Shown one piece after another: positions 2,786 to 34,620 of a DNA stretch of 34,620 nucleotides. Both the position numbers and the translations under genes were made by a program. Each line of letters opens with the position of its first letter. Within the stretch, counting starts at the first letter, position 1. Origin of the DNA: Eubacterium sp. (GTDB lineage Bacteria; Bacillota; Clostridia; Lachnospirales; Lachnospiraceae); NCBI GenBank assembly GCA_021769425.1, contig JAETSX010000053.1, positions 1 to 34,620 of the forward strand, in the 5' to 3' direction. Below the pieces are notes generated by a model that saw only the letters and a program-made list of their open reading frames with translations, ran no database searches and was not told the origin of the DNA.

Positions 2786-5699
2786 GAACATAGATATGAA
2801 GAGGCCAAACTGCCAGATAACTTTTTTGACGTCGCAGTAGGGAATGTCCCGTTCGGGCAGTTCAAAGTTTCCGATAAGCGGTATGACAAACACCATTTCC
2901 TGGTGCACGATTTCTTCTTTGCCAAAACACTGGATAAAGTCAGGCCAGGAGGCGTGATTGCCTTTATTACCTCATCGGGGACAATGGATAAGAAAAACCC
3001 CGCTGTGCGCAGATATATCGCACAGCGGGCAGAGCTTTTAGGTGCAATACGACTTCCAAATAATACGTTCCTTAAGAATGCAGGGACACAGACAACGGCG
3101 GACATTCTGTTTTTGCAGAAGCGTGACCGTATGGTGGAAGCGGGACCGGATTGGCTGTACCTGGACACGGATGAAAACGGAATCACCCAGAACCGCTATT
3201 TTATAGAACACCCAGAGATGGCACTTGGGGAAATGGCAATGGAACACACCCAGTATGGCTTGGACAGCGCCTGTCGCCCATATCCAGGGAAGGAGCTGGC
3301 AGATTTATTGGAGGAGGCTATTGTTAATATCCATGCTGAAATATCGGAATATGAAACAGACAGGCTGGGGGAAGGAACAGCCGATGCTATCCCAGCAGAC
3401 CCAAATGTGCCAAATTACTCTTATACTGTCTTAGACGGAGCCATTTATTATAGGGAAAACAGCCACATGAAGCTTGTGGAGCTGTCCAAAACAGGGGCGA
3501 ACCGTGTCAAGGGCATGGCGGCAATCCGTGACTGTGTGCGGGAATTGATTGCATCACAGAGGGACGGCTATCCTGATGCAGACATCCAAAAGGGGCAGCG
3601 GGAATTAAACCGCCTTTATGACGTGTTCCGCAGCAAATACGGGCTTTTGAATGCAAGGGCAAACCGTCTGGTGTTTGCGGATGACAGCAGCTACCCCCTT
3701 CTGTGTTCCCTTGAGGTGCTTGCAGAGGATGGGACGCTGGAGCGGAAAGCAGACATGTTTACCAAACGCACGATAAAACCCCATAAAGCGGCCACAAAAG
3801 TGGACACGGCCAGTGAAGCATTGTCCTTATCATTATCGGAGAAAGCCTGTGTGGATATGGGGTATATGTGCCAGCTCACAGGAAAAGGAGCCGGGGAAAT
3901 GGAACAGGAATTAAAAGGGGTAATCTTCCGCCTGCCTGACATTGAAGGTGCCGCGCCGCAGTTTATCTCGGAAGATGAATACCTTTCCGGCAATGTGCGA
4001 AAGAAACTAAAGGAGGCGAAACTTGCAGCGCAGTCAGACCCAGTATATGAAACCAATGTGCAGGCGTTGGAGCGGGTGCAGCCCAAAGACCTTTCTGCAG
4101 CACAAATCAGCGTCAGGATGGGGGCGACCTGGATACCCACGAAGGATGTTGCAGATTTTATGTTTCAATTGCTGGAAACCCCAGAACATTTAAGGGCTTA
4201 TTTTAAAATCCATTTTTTCAAATACACCGGGGAATGGCAGGTGGAGGGAAAGAGCAATGACAAGGGGAATGTCAAGGCGAATAACACCTATGGGACGCAC
4301 CGTGCCAATGCTTACCGAATTATAGAGGACACATTAAATTTGAGGGACACCCGCATTTACGATTATGAAGTGGACGATGAGGGCAGGAAAAAAGCCGTCC
4401 TCAATAAAAAAGAAACCGCCATTGCGCAGGGGAAACAGGATTTAATCAAACAGGCATTCCAGGACTGGATCTGGCAGGAGCCGGAACGCAGACAGCGCCT
4501 GACTTCCTATTATAATGAACATTTTAATGCGATTAGACCGAGGGAATATGACGGGAGCCATCTGCATTTTTATGGCATGAACCCTGAAATCCAGTTGAGG
4601 CAGCACCAGAAGAACGGCATTGCCCGCATTCTTTATGGCGGGAATACGCTGCTTGCCCATGTGATGGGGGCTGGGAAAACCTACACGATGGTGGCGGCGG
4701 CGATGGAAAGCAGGCGGCTGGGGCTTAGCAGCAAGTCAATGGTCGTGGTGCCAAACCACATCATTGAGCAGTTTGCGGCGGAATGGCTACAGCTATATCC
4801 GGCTGCGAATATCCTTGTGGCGACGAAAAGGGACTTTGAAACGAAAAACCGCAAGAAGTTCTGCGCAAGGATAGCCACCAGCGATATTGATGCAGTCATT
4901 ATCGGGCATTCCCAGTTTGAGCGTATTCCATTGAGCGTGGAACGACAGCAGGGGATGCTCCAAAAACAACTTAAAGAAGTGATGGACGGCATCCTGGAAG
5001 CGAAGCGCCATGAGGGGAGCCGTTTTACGGTAAAGCAGCTTGAGAAAAGCAGGAAGTCACTGGAGGGCAGGCTGAAAAAATTAAATGACCAGAGCCGCAA
5101 GGATGACGTGGTGAGCTTTGAGGAACTGGGCATTGACCGCCTGTTTGTGGACGAGGCGGACAGTTACAAAAACCTTTTTTTATACACGAAAATGAGGAAT
5201 GTGGCAGGGATTGCACAGACAGAGGCGCAGAAATCCTCGGATATGTTCTTGAAATGCAGATACCTGGATGAACTGACCGGGGGCAAAGGCGTCATATTTG
5301 CCACCGGAACCCCCATCAGCAATTCCATGACAGAGCTTTACACCATGCAGCGTTATTTACAATATGGAGCCTTGGAAAAAAGCAATTTACAGCACTTTGA
5401 CGCATGGGCATCCACGTTTGGGGAGACAGTTTCTGCAATAGAACTTGCCCCAGAAGGCAGCGGCTACCGGATGAAAACGAGGTTTGCAAAGTTTTATAAC
5501 CTGCCAGAGCTTATGATGATGTTCCGGGAAGTGGCGGACATACAGACCGCAGATATGTTAAACCTGCCTGTGCCGGAAGCGGAATACCGTGTCATCCATG
5601 TAAAACCCAGCGAAATGCAAAAAGAAATGGTGGAGGAATTGGGGAACCGTGCAGAACGTGTCAGAAACGGCATGGTAGACCCATCATCGGATAACATGC
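2786..5699 (+). pseudogene. LtrC-like DNA methylase/SNF2-type helicase of the ICE, 5' exon, truncated at its start
   Basis: The frame opens just after a TAG at 2783-2785 and has no start codon; the first possible start (GTG 2903) already lies inside a conserved domain. Near the start is NVPFGQF, the NPPY-type motif of N6-adenine methylases. It is followed by a Rossmann-like stretch ending in SSGTMDKKNPAVR. Further on come helicase motif I (MGAGKT near 4666), motif II (VDEADSYKN near 5146) and motif III (ATGTPISNSM near 5300). This is the large protein found in Tn1549/CTn-type elements, whose full-length versions are much longer. At 5699 the gene is cut by a group II intron, and reading on in frame stops at 5764. 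With its 5' end missing and its helicase split, it is very unlikely to make a working enzyme. Confidence 0.8.
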
Positions 5700-6099
5700 G
5701 TGAGCGATACGTTACAGCTATAAACCACGAGGAAAACGTGACAAAAGCTGTGACTGATGTGTAGTAATTAAAAAAATAGAGCACATCAGGATAACTGATA
5801 ATCTGAGAAGTGGAATGATGGAGTAACGCCCGGAAACGCTTCCCTTAATACCCCGTTGGGCGAGTGGATAAAGTTCACGGCCTACAGCACGGAGAGGACG
5901 GCTGAAGTATACCCAAACAGGCAGAGCTGTGGAAAGGTCGGCAGAGGTGCCGGCTGTATATGACAGGTCGGAGGTCTATATATAGTCATGGTTAGAATGT
6001 CTGAAAAGACTGACATATCTGCGAATGTACAAGTCTATATGTCGCATAGATAGAAATGTCTATTCCACGGGCGTGGAGCCAGTGAGGTAAAGTAAAAGT

Positions 6100-6108
6100 G
6101 CATGTTAT
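6100..6108 (+). other. Predicted EBS1 of the group II intron
   Basis: GCATGTTAT is perfectly complementary to exon bases 5691-5699. It lies in domain I, about 400 bases into the intron, a plausible place for an exon-binding site that selects the target during retrohoming and splicing. The complementarity is seen; the role is inferred from group II intron biology. Confidence 0.65.
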
Positions 6109-6439
6109 GGAATACCTTATGCCGTTACAGGCGGCATCAAGCTGGCAGGCTTAAAGCAGAACCTAAAACTATATTGAAATCCTTGAAGTTTTTTTCAGGG
6201 ATTGGGATAAGATTATCGGAACGTAGTAAGTTACCCGACACCTGCCCATTTGCAGGTGGTGATGACGAATCATATAAGCGTCTTTGCGGGTGATGAAAGT
6301 GGAGGCACAGTACTGATGATACACGCAATAATAAGGCGTGAGTAGGGATAGCCTCCAGTCAGTAGTCAGATTTGTAATAGGAATTATCACCATAGGTTCG
6401 AGCAAGACAAAAAGTTTGCTCCGAAAGGAGTGATGTTCT

Positions 6440-8350
6440 ATGACAAAGAAACGGAAAAACAAGAAGCTAAGGCACAATGAATACTACGATATGCAGGATA
6501 TTTATGACGGGCTGTACCAAAAGAGCAAAGACGGCGGGAAATTCAGGAACCTAATGCAGTATATCACTTGTGGAAACAATATAAAACTTGCGTATAGGAA
6601 CATCAAAGACAATGCCGGGAGTAAAACGTATGGTACAGACGATATGAATATCAAAGATATTGAACGAATCGAAGTAAGCGAGTTTGTGCAGATTATCCAG
6701 CGTAAATTTAAGGATTACCAGCCAAAAGCAGTAAAAAGGGTAGAAATCCCAAAAGAAGGGAGCGACAAAACAAGGCCGCTTGGAATCCCCACAATGTATG
6801 ACCGCCTGATACAGCAATGTATCTTGCAGGTTTTGGAGCCAATCTGTGAAGCAAAGTTTTATGAACACAGCTATGGGTTCCGCCCAAACCGGAGCGTGGA
6901 ACATGCTATCGCCCAGACGCACAGGAATATGCAGTTATCCAACCTGCATTACTGTGTGGATATAGACATACAGGGATTTTTCGATAACGTCAACCACTCA
7001 AAGCTGTTAAAACAGATTTGGACAATGGGGATACAGGACAGGCAGTTATTAGTGATTATAAGGAAGATGTTAAAAGCCCCGGTCAAAATGCCGGACAAGA
7101 CCGTCTGTTATCCAATGAAAGGAACACCGCAGGGCGGTATTTTGTCGCCGCTGCTGTCCAATATCGTGCTGAATGAGCTGGACTGGTGGGTCAGCAGCAA
7201 CTGGGAAAACATGCCGACAAGGTATGAATACTACACAACCACCACCAAAAACGGCACGGTCAGCAGGAGCGGCGCAATGGAAGCATTAAAGAAAACCAAT
7301 GTAAAGGAAATGCGGATTGTGCGGTATGCGGATGACTTCAAAATCTTTTGCAGGAGTTATGACGCCGCCGTCAGGACATTCCATGCGGTGAAAGGCTGGC
7401 TGAAAGAACGGCTGAAACTGGACATCTCACCCGAAAAATCAAAGATAGTAAACTTGCGGAAACACTATTCGGACTTTCTTGGATTTAAGTTAAAGGTTCA
7501 TCGGAAAAGGAATAAATACACGGTTGTCAGCAGTATGGGCGACAAAGCTGTGAAAAAGGCGGCAAAGAAGCTGGTGGAGCAGATAAAGCGCATACAGAAG
7601 CCGGACAGCGGCAAAGAGCAGTATAAGATGATACAAAACTACAATTCAAAAGTCATGGGTATCCACAATTATTATAAAATAGCTACCCGGATATGCCTTG
7701 ACTGCCGAAAGATAGCATTCCAGGCAACGGCTGTATTCAAGAACCGTATGAGGAAAAATTTTAAATCCGTGAAGTATTATAAAAAGCGGAAAAAGAGAGT
7801 GCCAAACATATCAAAAGCTGTGAAAATGAATTATGGGAAAAGCGAGCAGATCCGATTTATAAGCGGCTATGCAGTAGCCCCGGTTGGATATGTACAGAAC
7901 AAAATCCCTAAGTGTAAGAAAAAGTCTGTCAATAAATACACAGCCGAAGGGCGTGCTGAAATCCACAATAATTTAGGGATAGACACCTTTACGCTGTTGA
8001 AACTCATGCAGAACCCTGTCAGCAACAGGAGCATACAGTATGCGGACAACAGGATTTCACTGTATGCCGGGCAGTATGGGAAATGTGCAGTAACAGGGAT
8101 AAAACTGGAATACAGCGATATCCACTGCCACCATAAAACCCCACGCTGTCAAGGCGGTACAGATGAATATAGAAATCTGGTAATTGTGCATGAGGACATC
8201 CACAGGCTAATCCATGCGACAAAGCAGGACACAATATCACAGTATATTTCCGAATACAAAGACACCATAGATTTACGCAAACTGAATGAGTTGAGAAACT
8301 TAGCTGGAAACACAGAAATAAGTTCTTTGGATAATACTATTGCAATCTAA
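6440..8350 (+). CDS. ltrA: Group II intron reverse transcriptase/maturase with HNH endonuclease (LtrA-type)
   Basis: This 636-residue intron-encoded protein has the usual order of reverse transcriptase, maturase (X) and HNH domains. RT blocks include RPLGIPTMYDRLIQQ, YGFRPNRS, GTPQGGILSPLLSN and the catalytic YADD at residues 296-299. The C-terminal HNH nuclease shows a CxxC-like pair (CAVTG and others) with HCHH at residues 562-565 and a following NLVIVHEDIHRLIHA. The protein should bind its intron RNA, assist splicing and prime reverse transcription after cutting the target strand. ATG 6440 has GGAG upstream (AAAGGAGTGATGTTCT). The frame is complete with all catalytic residues, so it may act in trans even if its own intron copy cannot splice. 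Confidence 0.93.
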   Translation: MTKKRKNKKLRHNEYYDMQDIYDGLYQKSKDGGKFRNLMQYITCGNNIKLAYRNIKDNAGSKTYGTDDMNIKDIERIEVSEFVQIIQRKFKDYQPKAVKRVEIPKEGSDKTRPLGIPTMYDRLIQQCILQVLEPICEAKFYEHSYGFRPNRSVEHAIAQTHRNMQLSNLHYCVDIDIQGFFDNVNHSKLLKQIWTMGIQDRQLLVIIRKMLKAPVKMPDKTVCYPMKGTPQGGILSPLLSNIVLNELDWWVSSNWENMPTRYEYYTTTTKNGTVSRSGAMEALKKTNVKEMRIVRYADDFKIFCRSYDAAVRTFHAVKGWLKERLKLDISPEKSKIVNLRKHYSDFLGFKLKVHRKRNKYTVVSSMGDKAVKKAAKKLVEQIKRIQKPDSGKEQYKMIQNYNSKVMGIHNYYKIATRICLDCRKIAFQATAVFKNRMRKNFKSVKYYKKRKKRVPNISKAVKMNYGKSEQIRFISGYAVAPVGYVQNKIPKCKKKSVNKYTAEGRAEIHNNLGIDTFTLLKLMQNPVSNRSIQYADNRISLYAGQYGKCAVTGIKLEYSDIHCHHKTPRCQGGTDEYRNLVIVHEDIHRLIHATKQDTISQYISEYKDTIDLRKLNELRNLAGNTEISSLDNTIAI

Positions 8351-8359
8351 TTATTGATG

Positions 8360-8395
8360 GAGCGCCGTGTGATGGGAAACTGTCATGCACGGTGC
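8360..8395 (+). ncRNA. Group II intron domain V
   Basis: A GAGCGCCGTG arm, GGGAAAC tip and CACGGTGCG arm form the short, highly conserved catalytic hairpin that starts with the AGC triad. It lies 10 bases after the maturase stop codon, as usual for these introns. An ATG at 8385 inside it is in frame with the 3' exon. Confidence 0.75.
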
Positions 8396-8420
8396 GAACC
8401 GGGGGAAAGCGGCGAGGGAG

Positions 8421-9653
8421 AAAAAGTTGACGCAACTATTGTTTTGCGATTTGTCGACGCCAAAAAACGACGGCACATTCAGCGTTTATAACGACATTAG
8501 GGATAAATTGACTGCAAAAGGAATCCCCCCGGAAGAGATCGCATTTATCCACCATGCAGACACCGATGCAAAGAAAAAAGAATTGTTTTCCAAAGTAAGG
8601 AGGGGCGCTGTCCGTGTCCTAATGGGCAGCACGTTTAAAATGGGCGCTGGGATGAATGTGCAGGATTTGATAATTGCGTCCCACGATTTGGATGTGCCCT
8701 GGCGCCCGCGAGATTTACAGCAGAGGCTTGGCCGGACGGTTCGGCAAGGCAATACAAATAAGAAGGTTGCTATTATCCGGTATGTCACAGAAGGGACATT
8801 TGACGCATTTTTGTACCAGGTGATTGAAAACAAGCAGAAGTTCATCAGCCAGATTATGACAAGCAAAAGCCCTGCCCGAAGTATGGAAGATGTAGATGAA
8901 GCCGCCCTTTCCTATGCGGAAATCAAAGCCCTGGCGACTGGAAATGTGCATATAAAAGAGAAGATGGAGCTGGACATCCAGGTGTCAAAACTGCAATTAT
9001 TAAAACAAAGCTTTCTGAGCCAGAAATATGAAATGGAAAATAATGTGGCCAAATATTTCCCAAAGGAAATAGAAAAACAGGAACAGTGTATCACAGGATA
9101 TGAGGCGGACATGACACAGGTGCAAGCCCATACACCATCAGAACGCAGTATATTTCCGACTATGCAGATAAACGGCACGGTATATCATGAGAAAAAAGAG
9201 GCAGGACAGGCGCTCTTAGATGCCTGCAAAGCAATGAAATCGCCAGAGGGCGTGCCGCTTGGGGCATACCGTGGACTTCAGATGGAGCTTTCCTATGACA
9301 GTTTTATGATGGGATTTGTTGTTGCCTTGAAGGGAAAACGAACCTATCAGGTCACCCTTGGCGAAGACCTTTATGGAAATATTACAAGGATAGACCATGA
9401 GATAGAGAAAATTCCAGACAGCCTGGAACAGTGCAGGGAATATTTAAAGACGTTGCAAATCCAACTTGAGACAGCAAAAAAGGAAGTAAAGAAAGAGTTC
9501 CCAAAAGAGCAGGAACTGTCTGAAAAAGTGGCAAGGCTTGGGGAACTGAATGCACTCCTGGATATGGATAAAAGGGATAAGGTATTATTAGATGAAACAG
9601 CAGAGGTAAAGGAGGCTGAGCCAAAACGGAAAAAGACAGAACGTGAGAGGTAA
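8421..9653 (+). pseudogene. LtrC-like helicase, 3' exon (helicase lobe 2 and C-terminal coiled region)
   Basis: Host-gene homology resumes at KKLTQLLFCDLSTPKNDG and continues with the lobe 2 motifs GSTFKMGAGMNVQ and LQQRLGRTVRQGN, then a hydrophilic helical C-terminus. In intact family members about 50 residues (a segment around NDGRKLALDQR) lie between the DNM that ends the 5' exon and this LTQL block. They are absent here, so even perfect intron removal would not restore the protein. The frame is open back to an ATG at 8385 inside intron domain V, without a good ribosome binding site. A 422-residue product from there would be only a helicase fragment. The gene is followed by about 285 bases without a convincing gene. 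Confidence 0.78.
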
Positions 9654-10348: not shown

Positions 10349-10709
10349 GATTAGGGGAGGATAAGGAAGCATTCTTAGAGTAGGCAGGAACAATGATTTT
10401 AGTAGAAAGAGATAGAAATCTATGATATACTAATATATAAATCAGATGATAAATCCTTGAAAAATTGCAATTAAAACTAGGCGCCAATCATATTATCAGC
10501 GTCATGGGATTGATTCAAGCTGCTTTATGAAGTGGAAATTTTGTAGGGATTTGCTGAAGCTGAGTTAAAATTATGGAAAGAAATTTTTGGTGTTTTGTTT
10601 TTAGTATTGGAAGAATATTGCTTTATCACGGGATGGACAAAGAAATTTTACTAAGTTATAGGATAAAAATTGAGAAAAAGTTTATTATTTAGATTGGAGA
10701 GTGATTAAT
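10349..10709. other. AT-rich intergenic stretch before the DUF262 gene
   Basis: About 360 bases with no reading frame I can support on either strand. Composition shifts here from the moderate GC of the ICE backbone to clearly AT-rich, which marks the left edge of the cargo gene that follows. Its promoter is presumably here, but no -35/-10 pair stands out enough to call. Confidence 0.5.
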
Positions 10710-12491
10710 ATGGGATTACAGCCAAAAATTAATGGAAAGACAGTTGAACGTGCGTATGAAGATTATAGGAATGGTATCTATTTGGTGAATCGTAGATATC
10801 AACGTAAACTTGTTTGGAATAAAAATGAAAAAGAGGCTTTTATTGATTCATTAAAGAATGGATATCCTGTACCATTATTTCTTTTTTCGGTTAATGAATA
10901 TAAAGGAATACGAAGACAGGAAATAATTGATGGAATGCAAAGATTAAATGCAATATTTGGTTTTATTGAGAACGAATTTGAAATAGAGGGATATTATTTT
11001 GATTTATCTTCCACTGCTTTGACTAAACAATTATTAGACGAAAATGTGTTAAAGCAAAAAGAGCCTGTTTTAGATAGAACAGATTGCGTTAGGATTGCAA
11101 GTTATGAATTACCTTTTTCAAGTTATGATGAAGATAATCCAGATATTATTGATGAGGTTTTTAGAAGAATTAATTCAAATGGAAAGCATCTATCAAGACA
11201 GGAAATAAGACAAGCTGGTGCAACTGGTGAATTTGCAGAGTTGGTACGTGTATTGTCAACAAAATTACGTGGGGATGTGTCACATGAAGATGTATTGCTT
11301 TTGGAACAAATGAAAGAGATAAGTATTCAACAAGATGGAAATGGGTATGGAATAGTTGCTGATGAGGTTTTTTGGGTAAAACAGAACATTATTCTCAAAA
11401 AGGATTTAAGATTATCAATGGATGAAGAAATTGTAGGGGATTTAGTAGGTGCTATGGTTGCCGAAACAATACCTCCATCTAGAGTAAGTGTGTTGGATGC
11501 ATATTATTATATAAATGTGGAAGAACAGGATGGTCGTGGTTATAAAACAGAAAAGGCTATTCAAGTTAGAAGTGCAGAAACTATAAGTATACAATTCCTC
11601 TATATAATTGACGAGATAAAAAAGATTTTTTTTGGAAAAGAGCATACAATAATTCAACATATTCTTAATCAAAGAGTGTATAGAGGACCGAGATATTTTC
11701 AAACTTTATTTTTAGCTTTGCATGAATTGCTTATAAAAGAAGAGATGAAAATAATAGATTATGATAAAGTTTATGAAAAATTATATAATATTGCTGACCG
11801 TACAATGATTATTTCAGGAGGGGGAGGAGCATGGAGTGCAAAAGAGAAAATAGAGGTTGTTGCAAAAACAGTTGCAATTTTGAAACCAGCATTTGTAGAA
11901 CGAACAGAAGGAGATCCGATGCATTATTCATATGCAACTGAAATAGAAACCTTATTAAAACAATCAAAAACAGAAAATACGCAGTATGATTTTAAACAAG
12001 GTATTCATGATTTGGTTAGTGGAAAAAGAAATGAACGTTTGATAAGAAAAATATTTAAGACTTTAACAGCAATGGGAAATTCAGGAAAGAATGCAATAGG
12101 ATATGTGTTAATTGGTGTTGCTGATAAGTTTGAAGATGCAGAAAAAATTTCAAGAATGTATAATGGGGAAAACATTAAAGTAGGGAATTTTTATATTACA
12201 GGTATTGATGGAGAAGTGGAAAAGTATTATGAAGGAGATTATGACTCATATTTTACACAACTCAAGAATGCATTAGAACAGATGCCTTTAGATGAACATT
12301 ATATGAGACAAATAGGTTCAAAAATGAGGATGGTAAATTATTACGATAAATCGGTAGTAATTATAAAAATAATTAGTGACAATGGCGCAGTAATGTTCGA
12401 CAATAATTATTATACTAGAACAGGTGCAAACAATAATCCAGAACCAGTGTCAGCTCCAGAGATGCCAGCATTTTTTGCAAAGTTTATTTAG
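10710..12491 (+). CDS. DUF262 and AlbA_2 (Schlafen-type) domain fusion, candidate defence protein
   Basis: The N-terminal half is DUF262 (GmrS/ParB-like fold). DGMQRL at residues 74-79 stands for the usual DGQQR, and RRINSNGKHLSRQEIR is the second conserved block. The C-terminal part, from about residue 415, has QYDFKQGI and then IGYVLIGVADKFEDA. This matches the AlbA_2/Schlafen putative nucleic-acid-binding domain, whose usual signature is EFK followed by LLIGV. DUF262 proteins include the GmrSD restriction enzymes and other anti-phage factors, so a role against foreign DNA is plausible but inferred. ATG 10710 has GGAGA 9 bases upstream; GTG 10701 is less well placed. The gene is AT-rich, unlike its neighbours, and lies alone between two related terminators, which points to acquired cargo. 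Confidence 0.75.
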   Translation: MGLQPKINGKTVERAYEDYRNGIYLVNRRYQRKLVWNKNEKEAFIDSLKNGYPVPLFLFSVNEYKGIRRQEIIDGMQRLNAIFGFIENEFEIEGYYFDLSSTALTKQLLDENVLKQKEPVLDRTDCVRIASYELPFSSYDEDNPDIIDEVFRRINSNGKHLSRQEIRQAGATGEFAELVRVLSTKLRGDVSHEDVLLLEQMKEISIQQDGNGYGIVADEVFWVKQNIILKKDLRLSMDEEIVGDLVGAMVAETIPPSRVSVLDAYYYINVEEQDGRGYKTEKAIQVRSAETISIQFLYIIDEIKKIFFGKEHTIIQHILNQRVYRGPRYFQTLFLALHELLIKEEMKIIDYDKVYEKLYNIADRTMIISGGGGAWSAKEKIEVVAKTVAILKPAFVERTEGDPMHYSYATEIETLLKQSKTENTQYDFKQGIHDLVSGKRNERLIRKIFKTLTAMGNSGKNAIGYVLIGVADKFEDAEKISRMYNGENIKVGNFYITGIDGEVEKYYEGDYDSYFTQLKNALEQMPLDEHYMRQIGSKMRMVNYYDKSVVIIKIISDNGAVMFDNNYYTRTGANNNPEPVSAPEMPAFFAKFI

Positions 12492-12562: not shown

Positions 12563-12610
12563 TTACATAGCCAGATGGTTTTCTAAAAGCAGAATCATCT
12601 GGCTGTTTTT
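12563..12610 (+). terminator. Rho-independent terminator after the DUF262 gene
   Basis: AGCCAGATG (12569-12577) pairs with CATCTGGCT (12596-12604), followed by GTTTTT. The outer sequence TTACATA and CTGGCTGTTTTT is shared with the hairpin at 10308-10348 on the other side of the gene. Confidence 0.75.
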
Positions 12611-12675
12611 ATGCCCAGATATTCAAGAAATGATATAAGAATATCAATACAAGGGCAGGGAAGGAAGTGAGAAAA

Positions 12676-13647
12676 ATGCCATATATCGCACCAGAAGTCA
12701 TTCAGGAAGTAAAGCGGATGGATTTATTGACCTATCTGAAAAGTTATGAGCCATATGAGCTTGTGCGCTTTTCCGGCAATGTCTACACCACCAAAACCCA
12801 TGACAGCTTAAAGATTTCCAACGGGAAATGGATGTGGTGGAGCCGTGGGATTGGCGGGCGGTCAGCCCTGGACTATCTGATAAAAGTTAAGGGATATGCT
12901 TTTTTAGATGCGGTACAGGCGATTGCAGGGCAGGCGGCCATAGATCCGCCTGTTCCCCCACCAGCCGAAAAGCCAATAGAAAAAAAGTTGCTACTGCCAA
13001 AGCCCAACCGTTGTCATACAAAGGTGGTTTCCTATCTAAAGGGACGTGGAATTGATGCAGATATTATTCAATTCTGCATCAATTCTGGGCAGATATACGA
13101 AAGTGAATCTTACCAGAATGCAGTGTTTGTAGGGCGGGACAGGGAAGGGAACCCGCGTTATGCGGCGCTGCGTGGGATAGGGACAGATTTCATTGGCGAT
13201 GCAAACGGCAGTGACAAAAACTATTCGTTTTCCATCCCAGCAGTAGGGGGCAGCGGCATTGTCCATCTGTTTGAGTCGGCCATTGACTTATTATCTTATG
13301 CTACGTTGCAGAAGATGGAAGGGCAGGACTGGCGGGAAGAACACCTGTTATCCCTTGCAGGGGTATATCAGCCAGCAAGGGAGTTGGGACGGAGTAAAGT
13401 GCCTGCCGCACTCACCCAATTCTTAAAAGACAGTCCAGAAATACAAAAAATCGTATTGCATTTGGACAATGACCAGGCGGGCAGGCTTACAGCAAAAGCA
13501 ATACAGACAGTGCTTCCAGGGAAATACCAGGTATTAGACCACCCTCCTCCACAGGGCAAAGATTACAACGACTGCCTATGTATCAGGCGCGGGTTTGAGG
13601 TGACAAGGCGGGGAAAACTGAACAAAGGGAGGAGCTATGGGAGGTGA
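12676..13647 (+). CDS. Toprim domain-containing DUF3991-type protein
   Basis: The N-terminal part (IAPEVIQEVKRMDLLTYL, then WWSRGIGGRSALDYLI) is the DUF3991-type segment that resembles a primase zinc-binding domain without its cysteines. The C-terminal part is a Toprim fold: LFESAIDLLSY supplies the conserved Glu, and VLHLDNDQAGR supplies the DxD pair. Such proteins are common in clostridial ICEs and are thought to act in DNA processing or replication of the transferred strand; the reaction is not established. I prefer ATG 12676, with AAGGAAG about 8 bases upstream, over GTG 12667. It is the first backbone gene after the DUF262 cargo and precedes a noncoding gap of about 330 bases. Confidence 0.8.
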   Translation: MPYIAPEVIQEVKRMDLLTYLKSYEPYELVRFSGNVYTTKTHDSLKISNGKWMWWSRGIGGRSALDYLIKVKGYAFLDAVQAIAGQAAIDPPVPPPAEKPIEKKLLLPKPNRCHTKVVSYLKGRGIDADIIQFCINSGQIYESESYQNAVFVGRDREGNPRYAALRGIGTDFIGDANGSDKNYSFSIPAVGGSGIVHLFESAIDLLSYATLQKMEGQDWREEHLLSLAGVYQPARELGRSKVPAALTQFLKDSPEIQKIVLHLDNDQAGRLTAKAIQTVLPGKYQVLDHPPPQGKDYNDCLCIRRGFEVTRRGKLNKGRSYGR

Positions 13648-13973
13648 AAATTGAGACGTAATAGCAGAGGAAGTCATAGCAATAACCATTTTTAGAGCTG
13701 CAAAAAGCAGTAAAAGAGAAAAAATATCAGGGAAACAGATAAATAATAGAAGGGAAATTATTGAGAAGCGGGGGATTATCATAGCGGTTAATGGCGGGAA
13801 AACATTTGTTTTCGGCGGGTAATGAGGCTGATTAGAAAGACAGTAAGCAGATAGCGGCGTGATACACAATACCAGCAAGCAACGCCTTTGGATTGCCACC
13901 GCCCTTTTCGGGCAGCGGCAGCCAAAGGCAGCTTGTCAGGGAATGCCCTGAAACCCCTTGGAAGAAATGGAGG
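13648..13973. other. Noncoding segment with two inverted repeats, possible oriT or regulatory RNA
   Basis: In an otherwise tightly packed module this 326-base gap has no credible gene. It holds GAAAAC-ATTT-GTTTTC (13798-13813) flanked by two GGCGGG copies. It also holds a larger hairpin with GCCTTTGG (13884-13891) pairing to CCAAAGGC (13922-13929) and a GC-rich inner arm, and a small CAGGG/CCCTG hairpin at 13937-13950. Hairpins near the relaxase operon are a feature of transfer origins, but I cannot place a nic site. An mRNA leader structure is the alternative. Confidence 0.4.
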
Positions 13974-28869: not shown

Positions 28870-28925
28870 TTTACTTCGTGAAAAAAAATGCTACTTCGTG
28901 AAATATTGCTAAAAAATGATACAAT
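28870..28925 (+). promoter_or_regulatory. Predicted LytTR-regulated promoter A (two TACTTCGTGA repeats and -10)
   Basis: ACTTCGTGA cores start at 28873 and 28893, 20 bp apart, each preceded by T. A -10-like TACAAT with an upstream TGA lies at 28920-28925. There is no standard -35; the second repeat ends 18 bases before the -10 and lies next to the -35 position, as at AgrA-type activated promoters. The same layout recurs at 34430-34485. The nearest large gene downstream is the secreted protein at 29170. Confidence 0.65.
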
Positions 28926-29006
28926 CAATCCGAAGAAAATATTGCTACAACGCAGTTGTAAATTAAAAAATATGCTTTGTATACTAAAAATGAGAGGAGG
29001 ATTAAG

Positions 29007-29107
29007 ATGGGGAATGTCAGAAATCCAAGTATTTAAAGATTGCTGAAAGTTTAATTCGGCAGAAAGTAGAAAGAGGAACTTATGAACAACTGGGACTCTG
29101 TTTGTAA
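29007..29107 (+). pseudogene. Possible frameshifted N-terminal remnant of a GntR-type regulator
   Basis: AGGAGG is 6 bases before ATG 29007, which opens only a nine-codon frame (MGNVRNPSI). If one base were restored at about 29026, the frame would continue as PKYLKIAESLIRQKVERGTY, which looks like the first helices of a GntR winged helix, before running into a stop at 29105. I read it as a broken regulator stub in the leader of the next gene. A short leader peptide is the alternative. Confidence 0.35.
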
Positions 29108-29169
29108 GGCTTTCACTGGTCGAAAAAATTTATGAAAACACAGGAAATTAGTTTTTAGGAGGAATTTAT

Positions 29170-30351
29170 ATGAAAATAAGAAAATTAGTAACCGTAATGT
29201 TAGGGGTAAGCCTGTTGCTGGGAAATATTTCTGTGGTAAACGCAGCAAACATGAATAATGCAGCTAAATTTGATACTGAAAGCAACAATGATAATTTGTC
29301 TGTGCTGCAATCTGAAATTATAACGGATGAAGTAACTTGTGAATTTACAAACAAAGCAGAAGAGGATACGGTAACTCCACATGCAAATGCCAGAAGAACT
29401 GCCAATAAATATATGTGGAGTTCAAGAACAATGAAATATGATTTTTCAGACCAAACATGGTCTACCAATAAAGAAATTTTTAGTACATATTCCAAAACAT
29501 CAGGCGGCTTTGTTATGTCAGGTTTTTTGGTAAATCCTAAAGGCCAGAAAGATTACAATACAGCGTTGAGAGAAGGGTATTTAAATGATTCTGCATATGC
29601 AGAAAATCAGGGACATTATTATCAGGATGTTGTATCTGGTGAGGGTAACAATAATGTTACATTTATGTTAGAGTCAAATGTAAATGTTTTTATTTTCGAT
29701 AAAGATGTCAATTTAATTTATAGATCATCTGACGAGGCAGGGGTTACAAGTTATTTTACTAGGTATTATTCAACATCTAAATTGATTGCAGGGCAAACAA
29801 ATAAAGTAATAAGTTTAGGCTTAGTTGATGGAAATTATTATTTTGTATTTGATGTAAAAAACGCTACAGCGACAAGCGGTTACCACTATGGATATTATGC
29901 TGGGCAGCCTTTGCCAATAGCACAAACATCAACGTTTTATGACCATATGCATAATACAAGAATTCAATGGGATAAACGGTCTTCTAGTCAATCAGCAAAT
30001 ACCCAAACAATGACAATAAATTGTCCGAGTGGGAGTGAAGATGAGTATGCTTTGACAAGTGTAAGGTTTATAGATAGGTCAAAAGCATTTGCAAATAATA
30101 CATATGCATCAAGAATTGATTATTATTACACTCCAGCAACGGCAAGTTATTCAACAAAATTAACGCAAACAGGCGGATGGTGGAGTGACTTAGTTGATAA
30201 TAACCCAGCTTCAGGTTCTATAGATGGGGATTACAAAACTTCTGTTACTGTGAACTGGGTGAGTGGTCTTGCTTATGTAAATGCTAGCTGCACTACAATG
30301 ACAAATATGACGATTAACTATTTAGTACCATTTGGAATAATAGCTGATTAA
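29170..30351 (+). CDS. Secreted protein of unknown function under the LytTR-type promoter
   Basis: A 393-residue protein with a clear signal peptide: basic start MKIRKL, hydrophobic VTVMLGVSLLLGNISVV, and an NAA cleavage region near residues 25-27. The mature part is rich in Ser, Thr, Asn, Tyr and aromatic residues and looks like an all-beta extracellular protein, with two Cys in its whole mature length besides none in the signal. No sortase motif, choline-binding repeat or catalytic triad is evident. AGGAGG sits 7 bases before ATG 29170, and a perfect terminator follows. I do not recognise the family. Promoter A, 245 bases upstream, suggests induction by the LytTR system encoded further on. 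AT-rich codon use sets it apart from the transfer genes. Confidence 0.75.
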   Translation: MKIRKLVTVMLGVSLLLGNISVVNAANMNNAAKFDTESNNDNLSVLQSEIITDEVTCEFTNKAEEDTVTPHANARRTANKYMWSSRTMKYDFSDQTWSTNKEIFSTYSKTSGGFVMSGFLVNPKGQKDYNTALREGYLNDSAYAENQGHYYQDVVSGEGNNNVTFMLESNVNVFIFDKDVNLIYRSSDEAGVTSYFTRYYSTSKLIAGQTNKVISLGLVDGNYYFVFDVKNATATSGYHYGYYAGQPLPIAQTSTFYDHMHNTRIQWDKRSSSQSANTQTMTINCPSGSEDEYALTSVRFIDRSKAFANNTYASRIDYYYTPATASYSTKLTQTGGWWSDLVDNNPASGSIDGDYKTSVTVNWVSGLAYVNASCTTMTNMTINYLVPFGIIAD

Positions 30352-30383
30352 TGATATTTCTAAAAAAGTTAGATTCAGCCACG

Positions 30384-30422
30384 GAGGGCATTAAAATTAT
30401 TTTAATGCCCTCTTAATTTTTT
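30384..30422 (+). terminator. Strong rho-independent terminator
   Basis: GAGGGCATTAAAA (30384-30396) and TTTTAATGCCCTC (30400-30412) form a perfect 13-bp stem with a 3-base loop. TTAATTTTTT follows. It should end the transcript of the secreted protein gene. Confidence 0.9.
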
Positions 30423-30448
30423 GGTCAAAAGGCAAGGAGGTAATAAAA

Positions 30449-31879
30449 GTGATGAATTATGTTCAAACTATTGGCAGTACACTGGTTAATGGAAAGAAAT
30501 ATAATGTCGAAAACTATTTTGTTTCACCAATGAAGGAATTATACCAAAAAACGGTATTAGTTGAGGATGGAAAGGAAAACAATAATGACAGCTACCGTCA
30601 GCATACAAAGTATAATGACAGGTTAGATTGTTACTTTAGTACATATGATTTAGTAAGTTTACTTCATAATGAAGAAAGTTATCTGGAAGGTACCATAGAT
30701 TCCAGCCAGGATGTAGATTATTATTCTTTTTCTTATCAGGAAAAAAAGTTATATTCAAAGATGGGAATTTCTTCAGAAGTTACTATTATGTTGGAATCTC
30801 CAGATAGTAACTGTAATTTAATATTGTATGATTCCTATGGAAATCAAATTGGAATGGCAGAAGATGATGGAAATGGCAATAAAAAACTTACAATACCAGA
30901 TTGGGATTGTGTTACATCACAATATATTATTAAAGTGGAAAGCACAGATAATGTATCAAATTTAGAGAAAAGCGCTTATCGTATAAAGATAATGGAAACA
31001 AGAAGCAAAGACACCCAAAGTAATAGTGTACAGCACGCTTGGGAAATAGAAAATGCTTGTAATGCTGACAATCGAGACGAAATAAGAAAGAAATACGAGG
31101 GATTATACAAAGAACAGCTTGATAGATTGCATAAAATTCAGTTTGAAGCATTACCAGAGAGCCAAAAATATTTAGGAACCGCTACGGTTCAAGAATTATT
31201 ATGCAGAATGAAAAATGGTGAGCAGTTGGATCAAAAAGAGATGGCATATGTAAAAATATTTGCTAACCTGGCTGATTATGAAAAGGCGGAAGCTAGCAAC
31301 TATATTCATAGTGAATTTTATCAGAGAATAAGGGAAAAAGCAGAGAAGAATGGTATGAAGGTGCCTGATGGATTATGGGAAATTGAGATGGATGTGGAAG
31401 GAAATATATCTGTGAAAGGAGATATGGAGGAAGAAGAAAGGATAAAATTGGAAAAGATGTTATCTGAAAATTTTGCCGAAGATTTGTGGAATAAGCATAT
31501 ACAGGCAACAGACATTTCTAAGGAACAATATAGATTATTAAATGGGTATCATGAATTGAACAAATTTCTTCAGAGTGCGACAAACGGGGAATATTCATAT
31601 AAAGATATTACTGTAGATAAAAATGGTAAAATTGGAGGATTGCCAGATAAAATGTGCCAATTGCTCAATTCTCAGGAGGCAAATGCCAAGTATGAGGAGT
31701 TAAGGGATGAAATCTATATGCTTATGGATTATGAAAATAAATATGGAGTTGAAAACATTATGAATTTTAGTATTAAGTATCAGGTCTCTGATTCAGAATT
31801 AAGTATTATTGACCCAGTTATTAGTATGGAATGGGTAAACAGTATCGGATATTATAAGAATATGAAACCTATCAAATAA
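30449..31879 (+). CDS. Unknown protein with a PPC-like beta-sandwich and no signal peptide
   Basis: A product of about 476 residues. Residues 75-185 resemble a bacterial pre-peptidase C-terminal (PPC) domain: LEGTIDSSQDVDYYSFSY, VTIMLESPDSNCNLILYDSY and the closing QYIIKVES and YRIKIME strands. PPC domains normally occur in secreted proteases, but this protein begins MNYVQTIGSTLVNGKKYN with no signal peptide and has no protease domain. The C-terminal 270 residues are charged and helical. GTG 30449 and ATG 30452 are both possible after AAGGAGG. Codon use is AT-rich like the secreted gene upstream. Family unknown; it may leave the cell by a non-Sec route or act inside. Confidence 0.7.
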   Translation: MMNYVQTIGSTLVNGKKYNVENYFVSPMKELYQKTVLVEDGKENNNDSYRQHTKYNDRLDCYFSTYDLVSLLHNEESYLEGTIDSSQDVDYYSFSYQEKKLYSKMGISSEVTIMLESPDSNCNLILYDSYGNQIGMAEDDGNGNKKLTIPDWDCVTSQYIIKVESTDNVSNLEKSAYRIKIMETRSKDTQSNSVQHAWEIENACNADNRDEIRKKYEGLYKEQLDRLHKIQFEALPESQKYLGTATVQELLCRMKNGEQLDQKEMAYVKIFANLADYEKAEASNYIHSEFYQRIREKAEKNGMKVPDGLWEIEMDVEGNISVKGDMEEEERIKLEKMLSENFAEDLWNKHIQATDISKEQYRLLNGYHELNKFLQSATNGEYSYKDITVDKNGKIGGLPDKMCQLLNSQEANAKYEELRDEIYMLMDYENKYGVENIMNFSIKYQVSDSELSIIDPVISMEWVNSIGYYKNMKPIK

Positions 31880-32373
31880 ATTTATGAATAGCATCTTGTT
31901 TTCTATATGTATAAAATGGTCAGGATGAATATACTGTAAATTTATTATATCAGGGTTTTGTCCGATAAAAAAGGTGAAGACTATGAGTTTTGGAATGATA
32001 TATTCGTATTAAGGGATAAAATTGTATATAGTACATTGTAGATAGAAGTTGGTTTGGAAAACAAGAAAAATATTTATAAAAATAATAGGAAGGAAAAGAA
32101 GCAGCTTTTCAGAAGTAATATTAAGGTTTCCCTGAAATAATGAAAGAATAGTTTGGATGCAAAAGCGTAAGTAGTTTGGAAAAATTGTGGAGTAAGTAAA
32201 ATAAGTATTAGTATTAAGAGGCTGTCGGATTATGAGGTAATAAAGTATATATGTAACGGTTAAAGGTTTTGTTGCTATTTTGTATGCTTGTAATCTTAAT
32301 CTTGGCAGTCTTTTTATTTTGATAAGTATAAATTTTGGTGATAAACTTGAAAAATAAAAGGGGATGAAATTTT
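31880..32373. other. AT-rich intergenic region upstream of the two-component genes
   Basis: Nearly 500 bases without a frame I can support. It lacks the ACTTCGTGA repeats, so the regulator operon does not seem to use the same operator. Several very short frames exist, including a hydrophobic one ending at about 32320, but none has both a ribosome site and the features of a signalling-peptide precursor. No clear terminator is seen after the 31879 stop. Confidence 0.5.
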
Positions 32374-33108
32374 ATGATAGAAATTGTTGTCTGCGATGAT
32401 AATGTAGAGGACTTGAATCATGCAACAGATATATTAAACAAAATTTTTGAAAATAAAAGTATTTTGTTTAATATAAGAGCTTATTTATCAGCTGGTGAAA
32501 TGTTAGATGCTGTTCAGAAAATAGATATAGCGATTTTGGATATTGCAATGAAAGAATATAATGGAATTGAAGTGGGGAGGAAAATTAGGGAGAAGTTTCC
32601 AAATGCAAAATTGATATATACAACTAGTTTTGAAGAGTATTGCATGCGGGCAATTAATGAAGTCCATGCTTTTTCTTTTTTATGTAAACCTCTGGACGGA
32701 CATAAACTGCAGGTGCAGATAAAAGAATTATTAGATAATTTTTCTGATTCTGTTGTAGAAAAAGAATTTTATAAAGTGACAGACAGCCGGAAAAGAGAAT
32801 ATTCCATGATGAGATTTAATCTGAAAGATATTTTATATTTTGAATATATAAAAAGGCAACGGAGAGCTTCTATTGTATTATTAGATGAAATATATGAATG
32901 TGAATGTGTATTTGAGAGGCTGACTGAAGAGTTAAAGCCATATGATTTTGTGGTAAATTGTCGAGGAAATTTAGTAAATTTGGTGCATGTTCAAAAAATT
33001 AAAGGATATATACTTTATTTGGATAATGGAAAGGAGCTGGCGATTGCACAAAAAAGAGTTGTAGAATTTAGAGTACAAATGAATGAATTTTTGCAACGAA
33101 ATTCCTAG
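32374..33108 (+). CDS. LytTR-family response regulator (AgrA/VirR-like)
   Basis: This 244-residue protein has a receiver domain with acidic pocket Asp8-Asp9, phospho-acceptor Asp56 (AILDIAM), TTSF and Lys105 in LCKPL. From about residue 130 it has a LytTR DNA-binding domain (FNLKDILYFEYIKRQRRASI, then VVNCRGNLVNLVHVQKI). LytTR regulators activate genes for bacteriocins, quorum sensing and secreted factors by binding paired direct repeats near -35. The matching repeats here flank this gene block at 28870 and 34430. ATG 32374 follows AAAAGGGGATGAAATTTT. The stop lies 10 bases before the kinase start, so the two are one operon. Confidence 0.92.
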   Translation: MIEIVVCDDNVEDLNHATDILNKIFENKSILFNIRAYLSAGEMLDAVQKIDIAILDIAMKEYNGIEVGRKIREKFPNAKLIYTTSFEEYCMRAINEVHAFSFLCKPLDGHKLQVQIKELLDNFSDSVVEKEFYKVTDSRKREYSMMRFNLKDILYFEYIKRQRRASIVLLDEIYECECVFERLTEELKPYDFVVNCRGNLVNLVHVQKIKGYILYLDNGKELAIAQKRVVEFRVQMNEFLQRNS

Positions 33109-33118
33109 GAGAGCAGAG

Positions 33119-34408
33119 ATGGATAGAATTTTATTGATTATGTGCAGCGGTTTTTCATGTTTTATTATAACTGAAATTCTGTTTCAGTTTATGAATGGCA
33201 GATATGAGAGAAGCTGTCAGAAGAAGTATGTTTATTTTTTTGCTAAAATGATTGTAATATTATCTATTGTATTTGTAAATTTATTAAATAATTCTGTCTT
33301 AAATTTGGCGGCATGGTGTATTGCAGTTGGTTTGTCGGCGTTTTTCCTTTATTTTGAATATGTTGACAGAACCTTGAAGCGTGTACTTGAATGTGAAGCA
33401 TTAGCGCTTTGTATGTGTGTCTGTGAATCGTTGGGTGTAATTTTATTACAATGGATGCTGCAATTATTGAATATAAAAATTACAAATGCAGTGATGTTAC
33501 ATTGCCTTGAAGTTACATTTTCAAAGATTATACTTATTTTTTTATATTATATGTTTATAAACAGATTAATGAAACGTAAATATTCCTCTTCTTCAAATAC
33601 ACAATATGTTATTTATATTATTATGTTAGGATATAGCCTAGTCAACATGGTAATTATAGTTGAATATTTTGTGCAGGGGCAAGAAAGTTATTTATGCGCA
33701 GTAAATATGGGATGCATTGTATTAGCCGATTTGTATCTATTGTATTATGTTAAAATGGCTGATGAAAAAAATTATTTTGAAAATCAGGTGAAAGCCTTGG
33801 AACAACAGGCGAATATACAATACGAGTATTATTTACAACAGACTAGAAAATATGAAAGAACGGTTCAAATTTTACATGATGTAAATAAACATATGAAAGC
33901 AATAGAGGATTTGTTTATGACGGAACAAAGGCAGAAAGCGAAGGAATATACAAATGAGATTGGAGACATGTTAAAGCCTCTTATACCAGTTGAATATACA
34001 GGAAATCCTATATTGGATATTCTTTTAACGGATAAACAAGTATTTATGAAAGACAAGAATATTTTATTTGATATTAAAACAGATAATGTAAATTTAGATT
34101 TTATCGCGCCAATAGATATTACTACGATTTTTGGCAATCTGTTAGATAATGCAATTGAAGCAGCAGAAAAAGTGGGGGATGATAAATATGTGTTTATAAA
34201 AATCACTTCTTATCATCAGATGATTGTGGTGAAAATGGAGAATAGTTGTGATGAAGTAAAGTGGAAAAATGGTTATCCAGTTTCCCAAAAAGGAAAAGGC
34301 AGGGGGATTGGGATTTTGAATGTGTTGAGTAGTATAGAGAAGTATGATGGAAACATAAAATTAAAACAAGATGGCAAACGATTTATTGTAGAGTTATTTC
34401 TTAATTAG
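33119..34408 (+). CDS. AgrC-like sensor histidine kinase (GHKL type)
   Basis: The 429-residue kinase has an N-terminal half of about six membrane segments, as in peptide-sensing AgrC/ComD kinases. A short coiled linker (NQVKALEQQANIQYEYY) precedes the dimerization and ATPase part. The phospho-accepting His is His253 in LHDVNKHMKAI, the N box is NLLDNAIEAAEK, and the G box is GRGIGILNV. Such kinases usually detect a secreted peptide, but no precursor or processing protease is found in the window. ATG 33119 has AGGAGA 6 bases upstream, overlapping the regulator stop; the frame extends back to 33083 without a better site. Confidence 0.9.
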   Translation: MDRILLIMCSGFSCFIITEILFQFMNGRYERSCQKKYVYFFAKMIVILSIVFVNLLNNSVLNLAAWCIAVGLSAFFLYFEYVDRTLKRVLECEALALCMCVCESLGVILLQWMLQLLNIKITNAVMLHCLEVTFSKIILIFLYYMFINRLMKRKYSSSSNTQYVIYIIMLGYSLVNMVIIVEYFVQGQESYLCAVNMGCIVLADLYLLYYVKMADEKNYFENQVKALEQQANIQYEYYLQQTRKYERTVQILHDVNKHMKAIEDLFMTEQRQKAKEYTNEIGDMLKPLIPVEYTGNPILDILLTDKQVFMKDKNILFDIKTDNVNLDFIAPIDITTIFGNLLDNAIEAAEKVGDDKYVFIKITSYHQMIVVKMENSCDEVKWKNGYPVSQKGKGRGIGILNVLSSIEKYDGNIKLKQDGKRFIVELFLN

Positions 34409-34429
34409 AATATTTTTTAGGGGAGAAAT

Positions 34430-34485
34430 TTTACTTCGTGATAAAAATTCTTACTTCGTGAAAAAGTGCTTGAAATTTATACTAT
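34430..34485 (+). promoter_or_regulatory. Predicted LytTR-regulated promoter B (two TACTTCGTGA repeats and -10)
   Basis: ACTTCGTGA cores start at 34433 and 34453 (20 bp apart), and a -10-like TACTAT lies at 34480-34485, 47 bp from the first core. Spacing is identical to promoter A. It points away from the kinase gene, so its target must lie beyond 34485, largely outside the window. Confidence 0.65.
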
Positions 34486-34620
34486 TTTGAGCGAAATTAT
34501 AAACAAACCTGAATTATTCACGGCGGTATGAGCAGGCATAAAATTTGCCGTAGTTACCGTTACAACCTCTTCCAATACCCCACTCTGCCACAAAACAGCC
34601 TAAAAATGGGCAGACTTCTC
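34486..34620. other. Right edge of window, no gene called
   Basis: GC content rises again here, suggesting a return to backbone DNA. A plus-strand frame from ATG 34528 and a minus-strand frame both run through, but neither has a ribosome site or a family I recognise. Confidence 0.4.

What the first reader, a model, noticed from the sequence alone, without database searches (positions are those of the whole stretch)
28870..34485. Two promoters with identical direct-repeat architecture bracket a LytTR two-component system
TACTTCGTGA occurs four times, as two pairs. In each pair the copies are exactly 20 bp apart, and a -10-like hexamer (TACAAT, TACTAT) starts exactly 47 bp after the first ACTTCGTGA core. 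The second repeat sits near the -35 position. LytTR regulators are known to bind such paired repeats about two helical turns apart. The element encodes one LytTR regulator, located between the pairs. This predicts a self-contained regulon carried by the ICE.
Basis: partly seen in the sequence, partly recalled or inferred. Interest (0 to 1): 0.75.

Follow-up and report, generated by a model that had tools for sequence, protein, structure and literature searches.

The report
Mobile quorum-sensing switch with matched operators
A gut bacterium's mobile DNA element carries a cell-to-cell signalling receiver of the agr type together with two copies of the DNA switch it most likely binds, and relatives of this receiver carry the same kind of switch near their genes, in two cases directly in front of the gene for the signal peptide.

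Summary
The 4.9 Mb host genome holds no other pair at up to 3 mismatches. Regulator (32374) and kinase (33083) are AgrA/AgrC-like. All 8 loci examined whose regulator is 46-100% identical (window included) have the same operator, about TAYYTSGTGC-AAAAAAWYYG-TAYYTSGTGC, within about 6 kb. In two it stands directly in front of agrD, with agrB near by. A search by motif alone led to a ninth locus, where the site follows a kinase fragment. So the pairs are very probably binding sites of this LytTR regulator in an agr-type quorum-sensing receiver. No agrD/agrB of its own was found; P2 is cut 43 bp downstream by an insertion sequence at the contig end. The module rides a Tn1549-like ICE. Binding was not tested.

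The parts
28872..28901 (+). Operator P1: TACTTCGTGA-N10-TACTTCGTGA, upstream of the DUF6947 gene
   Evidence: same pair in L031 at 8102
28910..28915 (+). Likely -35-like box of P1 (TAAAAA), 8 bp behind the second repeat; a CGA box follows at 28931-28933
   Evidence: box compared at offset 8 in 14 sites; CGA at offset 29 or 30 in 9 of 9 sites of the near clade; inference
29170..30351 (+). Secreted protein, 393 aa, signal peptide by eye, CBM-like_2 and DUF6947 domains; first large gene behind P1
   Evidence: 74% identical gene in L051
30383..30413 (+). Terminator-like hairpin between the DUF6947 gene and the next gene
   Evidence: 2 such sites found in the region, 1.5 expected by chance
30449..31879 (+). 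476-aa protein without family match; a relative lies behind the DUF6947 gene in L051 (58%), and in L031 (90%) it follows the remains of that gene
32374..33108 (+). AgrA-like response regulator with LytTR DNA-binding domain (FVVNCRG where others have FhRhHRS)
   Evidence: motif from PMC4227749 passages
33083..34408 (+). AgrC-like GHKL histidine kinase, overlaps the regulator gene
   Evidence: the two solved sequences found are S. aureus AgrC, 4bxi and 6e52
34432..34461 (+). Operator P2: TACTTCGTGA-N10-TACTTCGTGA, directly behind the kinase gene; in two relatives the site behind the kinase precedes agrD
34470..34475 (+). Likely -35-like box of P2 (TTGAAA); a CGA box follows at 34492-34494
   Evidence: inference
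34505..34620 (-). End of an insertion sequence (DDE transposase) that cuts P2 off from whatever lay downstream; the contig ends inside it

Best explanation
The module is an agr-type quorum-sensing receiver carried as cargo by a Tn1549-like (CD1110/CD1115) ICE. A cyclic peptide is sensed by the AgrC-like kinase, which phosphorylates the LytTR regulator; a regulator dimer binds the two direct repeats, 20 bp (about two helical turns) apart across an A-rich spacer, just upstream of the -35 position, and switches on P1 (a secreted DUF6947 protein and perhaps the 476-aa protein behind it) and P2. P2 stands where relatives have the agrD promoter; here it runs into an insertion sequence, so the set looks like a receiver without its own signal. 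Shown: exact pairs, their restriction to this locus, their recurrence near this regulator family, agrD behind the site in two relatives. Inferred: binding, direction of control, peptide ligand, and use of a sigma-28-like core promoter.
For: No other pair in the genome at up to 3 mismatches. All 8 loci examined with a regulator of 46-100% identity have a pair of period 20 (shuffles give 0 at 0 or 1 mismatch and 1.75 at 2 mismatches over the 14 loci and four spacings). In 397 family genomes the exact degenerate pattern occurs 8 times in 6 genomes; 7 of 8 lie in genomes with this regulator/kinase family, and the G008 site, found by motif alone, lies directly behind a kinase fragment. agrD (TIGR04223, E 3e-14 and 3e-10) follows the site in L050 and L052, with agrB (PF04647) near by. 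The kinase matches S. aureus AgrC structures. Repeats 11 bp apart, upstream of -35, are within the range known for LytTR operators (PMC6193735 passages).
Against: No binding or expression data. At one mismatch the pattern is common by chance: 63 places in 51 of 397 genomes, and the reversed control also rings in dozens (not counted). L034 and L054 reach the motif only at 2 mismatches, where shuffles also give hits, and the pattern was widened from TAYTTSGTG to TAYYTSGTG. The exact core pair occurs once in the viral contigs (L049), without a regulator in the 1.9 kb held. The regulator's DNA-contact motif is far from the classical one. Regulators of 32-37% identity lack the motif at the set threshold. 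No agrD or agrB belonging to the window module was found, so the signal is unknown. The core boxes of P2 fit sigma-28 only partly.
Confidence: 0.82

Rival explanations
1. The pairs are bound by this regulator, but the core promoters are ordinary sigma-A promoters with the reader's TACAAT/TACTAT as -10 and the second repeat in place of the -35 box.
For: TACAAT and TACTAT lie at the same distance in both window promoters and in L031; one search lists GTGAAA-16-TACAAT as a weak promoter-like site with TG before it (39 such sites found in the region, 33.7 expected).
Against: In 14 aligned sites the position of these hexamers (offset 18) matches TATAAT no better than background (2.21 of 6), while offset 8 matches TTGACA best (3.93 against at most 2.71 at other offsets from 0 to 39). 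The sites may share descent, so conservation alone is not proof of function.
Confidence: 0.3
2. The two promoters are simply a duplicated stretch (57 bp, 81% alike) whose repeats are read by some other factor of the ICE or the host.
For: The similarity spans the whole promoter; the host has 25 LytTR matches.
Against: The motif is absent elsewhere in the host assembly and recurs near the same regulator/kinase pair in other genera and in front of different genes.
Confidence: 0.1
3. The module still has its own agrD/agrB on the far side of the insertion sequence, in a part of the ICE missing from the assembly, so it is a complete agr circuit rather than a receiver only.
For: P2 stands where L050 and L052 have the agrD promoter; the contig ends inside an insertion sequence that begins 43 bp behind P2; the assembly is 97.4% complete.
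Against: All 6 agrB matches of the genome lie within about 2.2 kb of other LytTR genes, and the 5 agrD matches lie in the same places; L031, a reduced ICE with the same module, has no agrD or agrB match in its 20.7 kb; G391 (one contig) has its agrB matches far away, and G385 and G101 have none.
Confidence: 0.3

Closest known systems
agr quorum-sensing systems (AgrB/AgrD/AgrC/AgrA)
   Same: AgrC-like kinase, AgrA-like LytTR regulator, direct-repeat operators, and in two relatives agrD behind the operator with agrB near by.
   Different: In the window no agrD or agrB; operator sequence, A-rich spacer and period 20 differ from the S. aureus operator (which I recall as ACAGTTAAG with a 12-bp gap); contact motif FVVNCRG; the genes behind P1 are a secreted DUF6947/CBM-like protein and a 476-aa protein.
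LytTR regulatory systems (LRS, HdrRM/BrsRM of Streptococcus mutans; PMC6193735)
   Same: LytTR direct repeats separated by 11-13 bp, mostly 12, with a bias to 10 bp upstream of -35 (passages).
   Different: LRS use a membrane inhibitor protein; here a GHKL kinase partners the regulator.
Tn1549-like / CD1110-CD1115 conjugative elements
   Same: Window encodes the CD1110 VirB4-like and CD1115 VirD4-like proteins, relaxase, a class B sortase-like protein and a CHAP protein.
   Different: An agr-type receiver with matched operators follows the CHAP gene; the ends of the element are not in the contig. The name Tn1549-like is recalled.
SigD (sigma-28) promoters of Clostridioides difficile (PMC3865298)
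   Same: TAAA and CG separated by 15-18 bases (passages); P1 has TAAA and CG 17 apart.
   Different: An upstream LytTR operator; P2 and L050's agrD promoter have TTGAAA in place of TAAA, L052's TGGAAT.

Membership tests
LytTR response regulators (AgrA-like) | Receiver domain plus LytTR domain over the curated cut-offs | tested here: met
   PF00072 46.5 bits and PF04397 37.8 bits, both over cut-off
LytTR response regulators (AgrA-like) | FhRhHRS DNA-contact motif | tested here: not met
   FVVNCRG at that place (motif from PMC4227749); L031, L050, L051 and L052 share it
LytTR response regulators (AgrA-like) | Direct-repeat operator about two helical turns apart upstream of regulated promoters | tested here: met
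   P1 and P2, and all 8 loci at 46% identity or more; binding itself not tested
agr quorum sensing | AgrC-type kinase with membrane sensor and GHKL domain | tested here: met
   PF14501 8e-23; S. aureus AgrC as the only solved sequences found, E about 1e-4; membrane part judged by eye
agr quorum sensing | agrD and agrB in the same locus | tested here: inconclusive
   not in the window, and no unpaired agrB match in the genome, but the insertion sequence and contig end follow P2; present in L050 and L052
LytTR regulatory system (LRS) | Membrane inhibitor protein in place of a kinase | tested here: not met
   partner is a GHKL kinase
Tn1549-like ICE | CD1110 VirB4-like and CD1115 VirD4-like proteins | tested here: met
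   NF045971 1026 bits, NF045973 525 bits, both over cut-off
Tn1549-like ICE | Recombinase and attachment ends | tested here: inconclusive
   none seen among the window proteins scanned; a serine recombinase stands behind the module in L031
sigma-28 (SigD) promoters | TAAA, 15-18 bases, CG box | tested here: inconclusive
   P1, L031, L051, L173, L034 fit; P2 and the agrD promoters have the CGA box but TTGAAA/TGGAAT, L050's first site TTAAAT; sigma-28 gene over cut-off in 7 of 7 genomes

The most novel reading that the evidence does not exclude
A conjugative element carries an agr listener that lacks its own signal, keeps two matched operators, and so lets the element's secreted cargo respond to a peptide made by other bacteria (two relatives with the same operators encode CxxIGYQPxMP peptides); the operators sit on sigma-28-type promoters, so output would need both a peptide signal and an active flagellar sigma factor. 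In one relative genus the same operator type stands ahead of Thoeris-like TIR genes, which would put phage defence under the same kind of signal.
Probability: 0.25. Interest if true: 0.75.

Novelty: new variant of a known kind. Interest (0 to 1): 0.55.

Why it matters
It gives a defined operator sequence for a clade of agr-type systems in one bacterial family (Lachnospiraceae), found from sequence alone and checked across genera, so targets can now be read from genomes. It also makes two questions testable: whether mobile elements carry peptide receivers without a signal, and whether agr-type control can be joined to sigma-28 promoters or to defence genes.

Tried and rejected
Chance: rejected for the pairs, though half-sites and pairs with one mismatch are common. 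The TACTTCGTGA pair at up to 2 mismatches in 299 family genomes gave, besides the window's two, three hits in three genomes; none has a regulator or kinase match within the 3 kb held. The exact 9-bp core pair in viral contigs gave one contig, L049, with no A-rich spacer and no regulator or kinase in the 1.9 kb held. Structure predictions of the 476-aa protein (mean pLDDT 47) and of the DUF6947 protein (mean pLDDT 30) were too poor to search with; no fold search was made. Searches for further relatives in viral contigs and plasmids (best 28.5% identity, none) brought none close; the 'relatives' search brought one new handle, G409, whose coordinates match L031. I had first read the -10 position as variable among relatives (note); the alignment of 14 sites replaced that reading. 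A scan for strict sigma-28 promoters in 9 loci gave 6 hits, 3 of them at operators (5 of the 6 in the five loci for which shuffles gave 1.6). A scan in front of 25 of the 41 flagellin matches (those held as loci) found 3 of 25 (3.8% expected per gene; two are TAAA-N15-TCCGATAT, in G391 and G008, one is a poor fit); 3 of the 25 stretches were short because the contig ends. An earlier version had the orientation wrong and one crashed. The A-run at the start of the spacer as a filter (11 of 63 places, all 11 in genomes with the regulator or kinase family) was formed after seeing the sites and is not an independent test. Paper searches listed, by title and start of abstract, no paper on this operator or on agr receivers in Lachnospiraceae mobile elements, and none at all for DUF3879/4885/6033/6947; lists were capped (20 of 229) and the library lacks most subscription journals.
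Full report
Observation. TACTTCGTGA occurs four times without mismatch, all on the + strand: 28872, 28892, 34432, 34452. Each pair has period 20. TACAAT (28920) and TACTAT (34480) start 47 bp after the first ACTTCGTGA. The two promoters are alike over 57 bp at 81%. Half-sites with up to 2 mismatches are at chance level (22 against 18.7), but the pair with N10 and up to 3 mismatches occurs twice in the 4,915,403-base assembly, both times here, against 0 for the reversed control.

The genes. 32374-33108 is a receiver plus LytTR regulator, 33083-34408 a GHKL kinase; the only solved sequences found for the kinase are S. aureus AgrC. Behind P1 stand a DUF6947/CBM-like_2 protein with a signal peptide by eye (29170) and a 476-aa protein without family match (30449). 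A terminator-like hairpin lies between these two (30383-30413), and 494 bp without an ORF of 60 aa lie before the regulator, so it is open whether P1 also transcribes regulator and kinase.

Relatives. The searches gave, by identity of the regulator, L031 at 95%, L032/L050 at 70% (the same locus by its contig coordinates), L051 at 60%, L052 at 57%, L034 (MT839695) at 52%, L053 at 47%, L054 at 46%, and six loci at 32-37%. I scanned 14 loci (window included) for TAYYTSGTG pairs at spacings 19-22 with at most 2 mismatches. All 8 loci at 46% or more have a pair of period 20, from directly behind the kinase to 6.0 kb from the regulator (L054); L034 and L054 reach it only at 2 mismatches. None of the six lower ones has a pair of period 20; L057 has two 2-mismatch hits at spacing 21, and L031 one more at spacing 22. 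Shuffled loci gave 0 hits at 0 or 1 mismatch and 1.75 at 2 per set of 14. The pattern had been TAYTTSGTG and was widened after that. The spacer is A-rich: about TAYYTSGTGC-AAAAAAWYYG-TAYYTSGTGC. By eye L055 (36%) has TACTTCGGGG-AAAAAATCTG-TACCTCGGAA behind its kinase, and L056 and L057 have TAAGTTATAC/TAAATTATG-like repeats of period 20. The architecture therefore seems older than the half-site sequence; most regulators with CRG in the contact motif go with TSG half-sites and two with HQC go with TTAT half-sites. That is a hypothesis from few cases.

Whole-genome test. In 397 family genomes the pattern with no mismatch occurs 8 times in 6 genomes: G000 twice, G268 twice, G391, G385, G008, G039. 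Six of the 397 genomes have a regulator of 46% or more: G000, G268, G391, G176, G385, G101; four of these six have an exact site, the other two a one-mismatch site. G008 was not a carrier by protein search, yet its site lies directly behind the C-terminal 201 residues of a kinase 68% identical to the window's, on a 4.5-kb contig. The G385 exact site lies on another contig than its regulator. Only G039 stays unexplained; it has no A-rich spacer, and I did not look at its neighbours. At one mismatch the pattern is not specific: 63 places in 51 of 397 genomes, with the reversed control also ringing in dozens of genomes (not counted). One viral contig has the exact core pair without a regulator in the stretch held.

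agr identity. In L050 and L052 a peptide of 49 and 48 aa of the AgrD family (TIGR04223, E 3e-14 and 3e-10) is the first gene behind the site, and an AgrB (PF04647) follows at once in L050 and about 2.5 kb on in L052. The peptides contain CMCIGYQPKMP and CIFIGYQPQMP. AgrD-like peptides with CFFIGYQP lie behind the kinases of the lower-identity loci L056, L057 and, about 4 kb on, L059. So the position behind the kinase is an agrD promoter in relatives, and the loop would be the usual positive feedback of agr. In L050 an extra gene lies between kinase and site.

The window's P2. 43 bp behind the second repeat (34505) begins DNA that recurs in two other contigs of the genome (98-100% identical); beside it, in one of these, is a DDE transposase frame (PF13701; I recall this as an IS1380-type element, not tested). 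The contig ends in it. The genome's six agrB matches all lie within about 2.2 kb of other LytTR genes. The five agrD matches lie near five of these agrB genes, one of them on the other strand 2.7 kb away and one at E 1.0; the sixth agrB has no agrD match. In the assembly, then, the module is a receiver without a signal gene. This could be an assembly loss. G391 (one contig) has its four agrB matches far from regulator, kinase and P2; G385 and G101 have no agrB match at all. Receivers without agrB thus seem to occur in relatives too.

Other targets. In L051 and L173 P2 stands before a DUF3879 gene, in L034 before a DUF4885-like gene. In L050 a second site precedes a small secreted protein. In G385 three sites precede two related genes (VENVFDEMY proteins, 41.5% identical, one on another contig) and a pair of related proteins that look membrane-bound. 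In G101 two sites, with one and two mismatches, precede TIR-type genes: a ThsB-like protein (PADLOC 2e-49) with TIR/SLOG proteins further on, and a TIR-effector-like gene with a ThsA-like SIR2 gene further on.

Core promoter. Fourteen sites were aligned (L031 and L173 are near-duplicates of P1 and L051). A hexamer starting 8 bases behind the second 10-mer matches TTGACA at 3.93 of 6 on average, against at most 2.71 at any other offset from 0 to 39; it is TTGACA in all three G385 sites. In the 9 sites of the near clade CGA stands at offset 29 or 30 in 9 of 9 (7 of 7 without duplicates; 0 of 20,000 shuffles; no shuffled set of 2,000 gave any trinucleotide 7 of 7 at any offset pair). Shared descent of the promoters could explain part of this. 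TAAA followed by CG after 15-18 bases is the SigD consensus in C. difficile (PMC3865298, passages). P1, L031, L051, L173 and L034 fit it; P2 and the agrD promoters have the CGA box with TTGAAA or TGGAAT, so the fit is partial. All 7 genomes tested have a sigma-28 gene over the cut-off and flagellins. Flagellin promoters gave only weak support for the same grammar (3 of 25). I hold the sigma-28 reading at about even odds. Repeats placed just upstream of -35 agree with what is known for LytTR operators (passages of PMC6193735: mostly 12 bp, a minority 11 or 13 bp apart, with a bias to 10 bp upstream of -35).

Mobility. The window carries the CD1110/CD1115 conjugation genes, a relaxase and a class B sortase-like protein. 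L031, a genome of the same genus (its coordinates match G409), holds the module at 91-96% DNA identity, without most of the DUF6947 gene, next to short pieces of the same ICE (window 12564-13777 collapsed to about 350 bp, then 28827 onward), and a serine recombinase about 740 bp behind the kinase; its P2 keeps one repeat only. L034 has a relaxase gene directly before the regulator. The module is therefore probably mobile in at least two settings. In one search, 3 of the 23 same-genus genomes listed (own included) carry the regulator; 371 further genomes without a match were not listed.

Verdict. The finding is real. Its reading as a LytTR regulon on an ICE is very likely right, the promoter geometry needs correction, and the system should be called agr-type. 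Papers were seen as listings, and as passages for PMC4227749, PMC6193735, PMC7438776, PMC3865298, PMC5200910 and PMC10301443.

Noticed in passing
window 2903-9653: A helicase-type gene (SNF2/ResIII part 2903-5764, Helicase_C part 8385-9653) appears split by a reverse-transcriptase gene, group II intron kind as I judge it (6440-8350); pieces searched apart.
   Followed up: partly
window 97-1929 and 10701-12491: Defence-type genes in the same contig: a protein matching the C-terminal part of a type III restriction enzyme model (PADLOC 1.8e-71) and a GmrSD_N/Schlafen-AlbA protein.
   Followed up: partly
L054 1555-9141 (G101:C38): The AgrC-like kinase frame runs without stop into RHS repeats, a 2528-aa open frame with GHKL, RHS_repeat and CBM_4_9 matches.
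   Followed up: partly
L054 15912 and L142 8177 (G101:C38): Operator-type sites precede Thoeris-like TIR gene clusters, with a 5-hmdU DNA kinase-like gene and a SIR2 gene among them.
   Followed up: partly
window 28990-29150: The stretch between P1 and the DUF6947 gene looks by eye like the worn remains of a GntR-type coding sequence in shifted frames; 28997-30258, most of the DUF6947 gene included, is missing in L031.
   Followed up: no
L050 11978-13327 (G268:C6): What looks like a reverse-transcriptase gene of group II intron kind lies between kinase and agrD promoter (by eye from the protein start).
   Followed up: no
L050, L051, L052 genes behind the sites: Several products without an obvious signal peptide share a V-x-I-S-x-x-G-like stretch near the N-terminus; DUF3879, DUF6033 and DUF4885 proteins occur among the genes there (by eye).
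   Followed up: no
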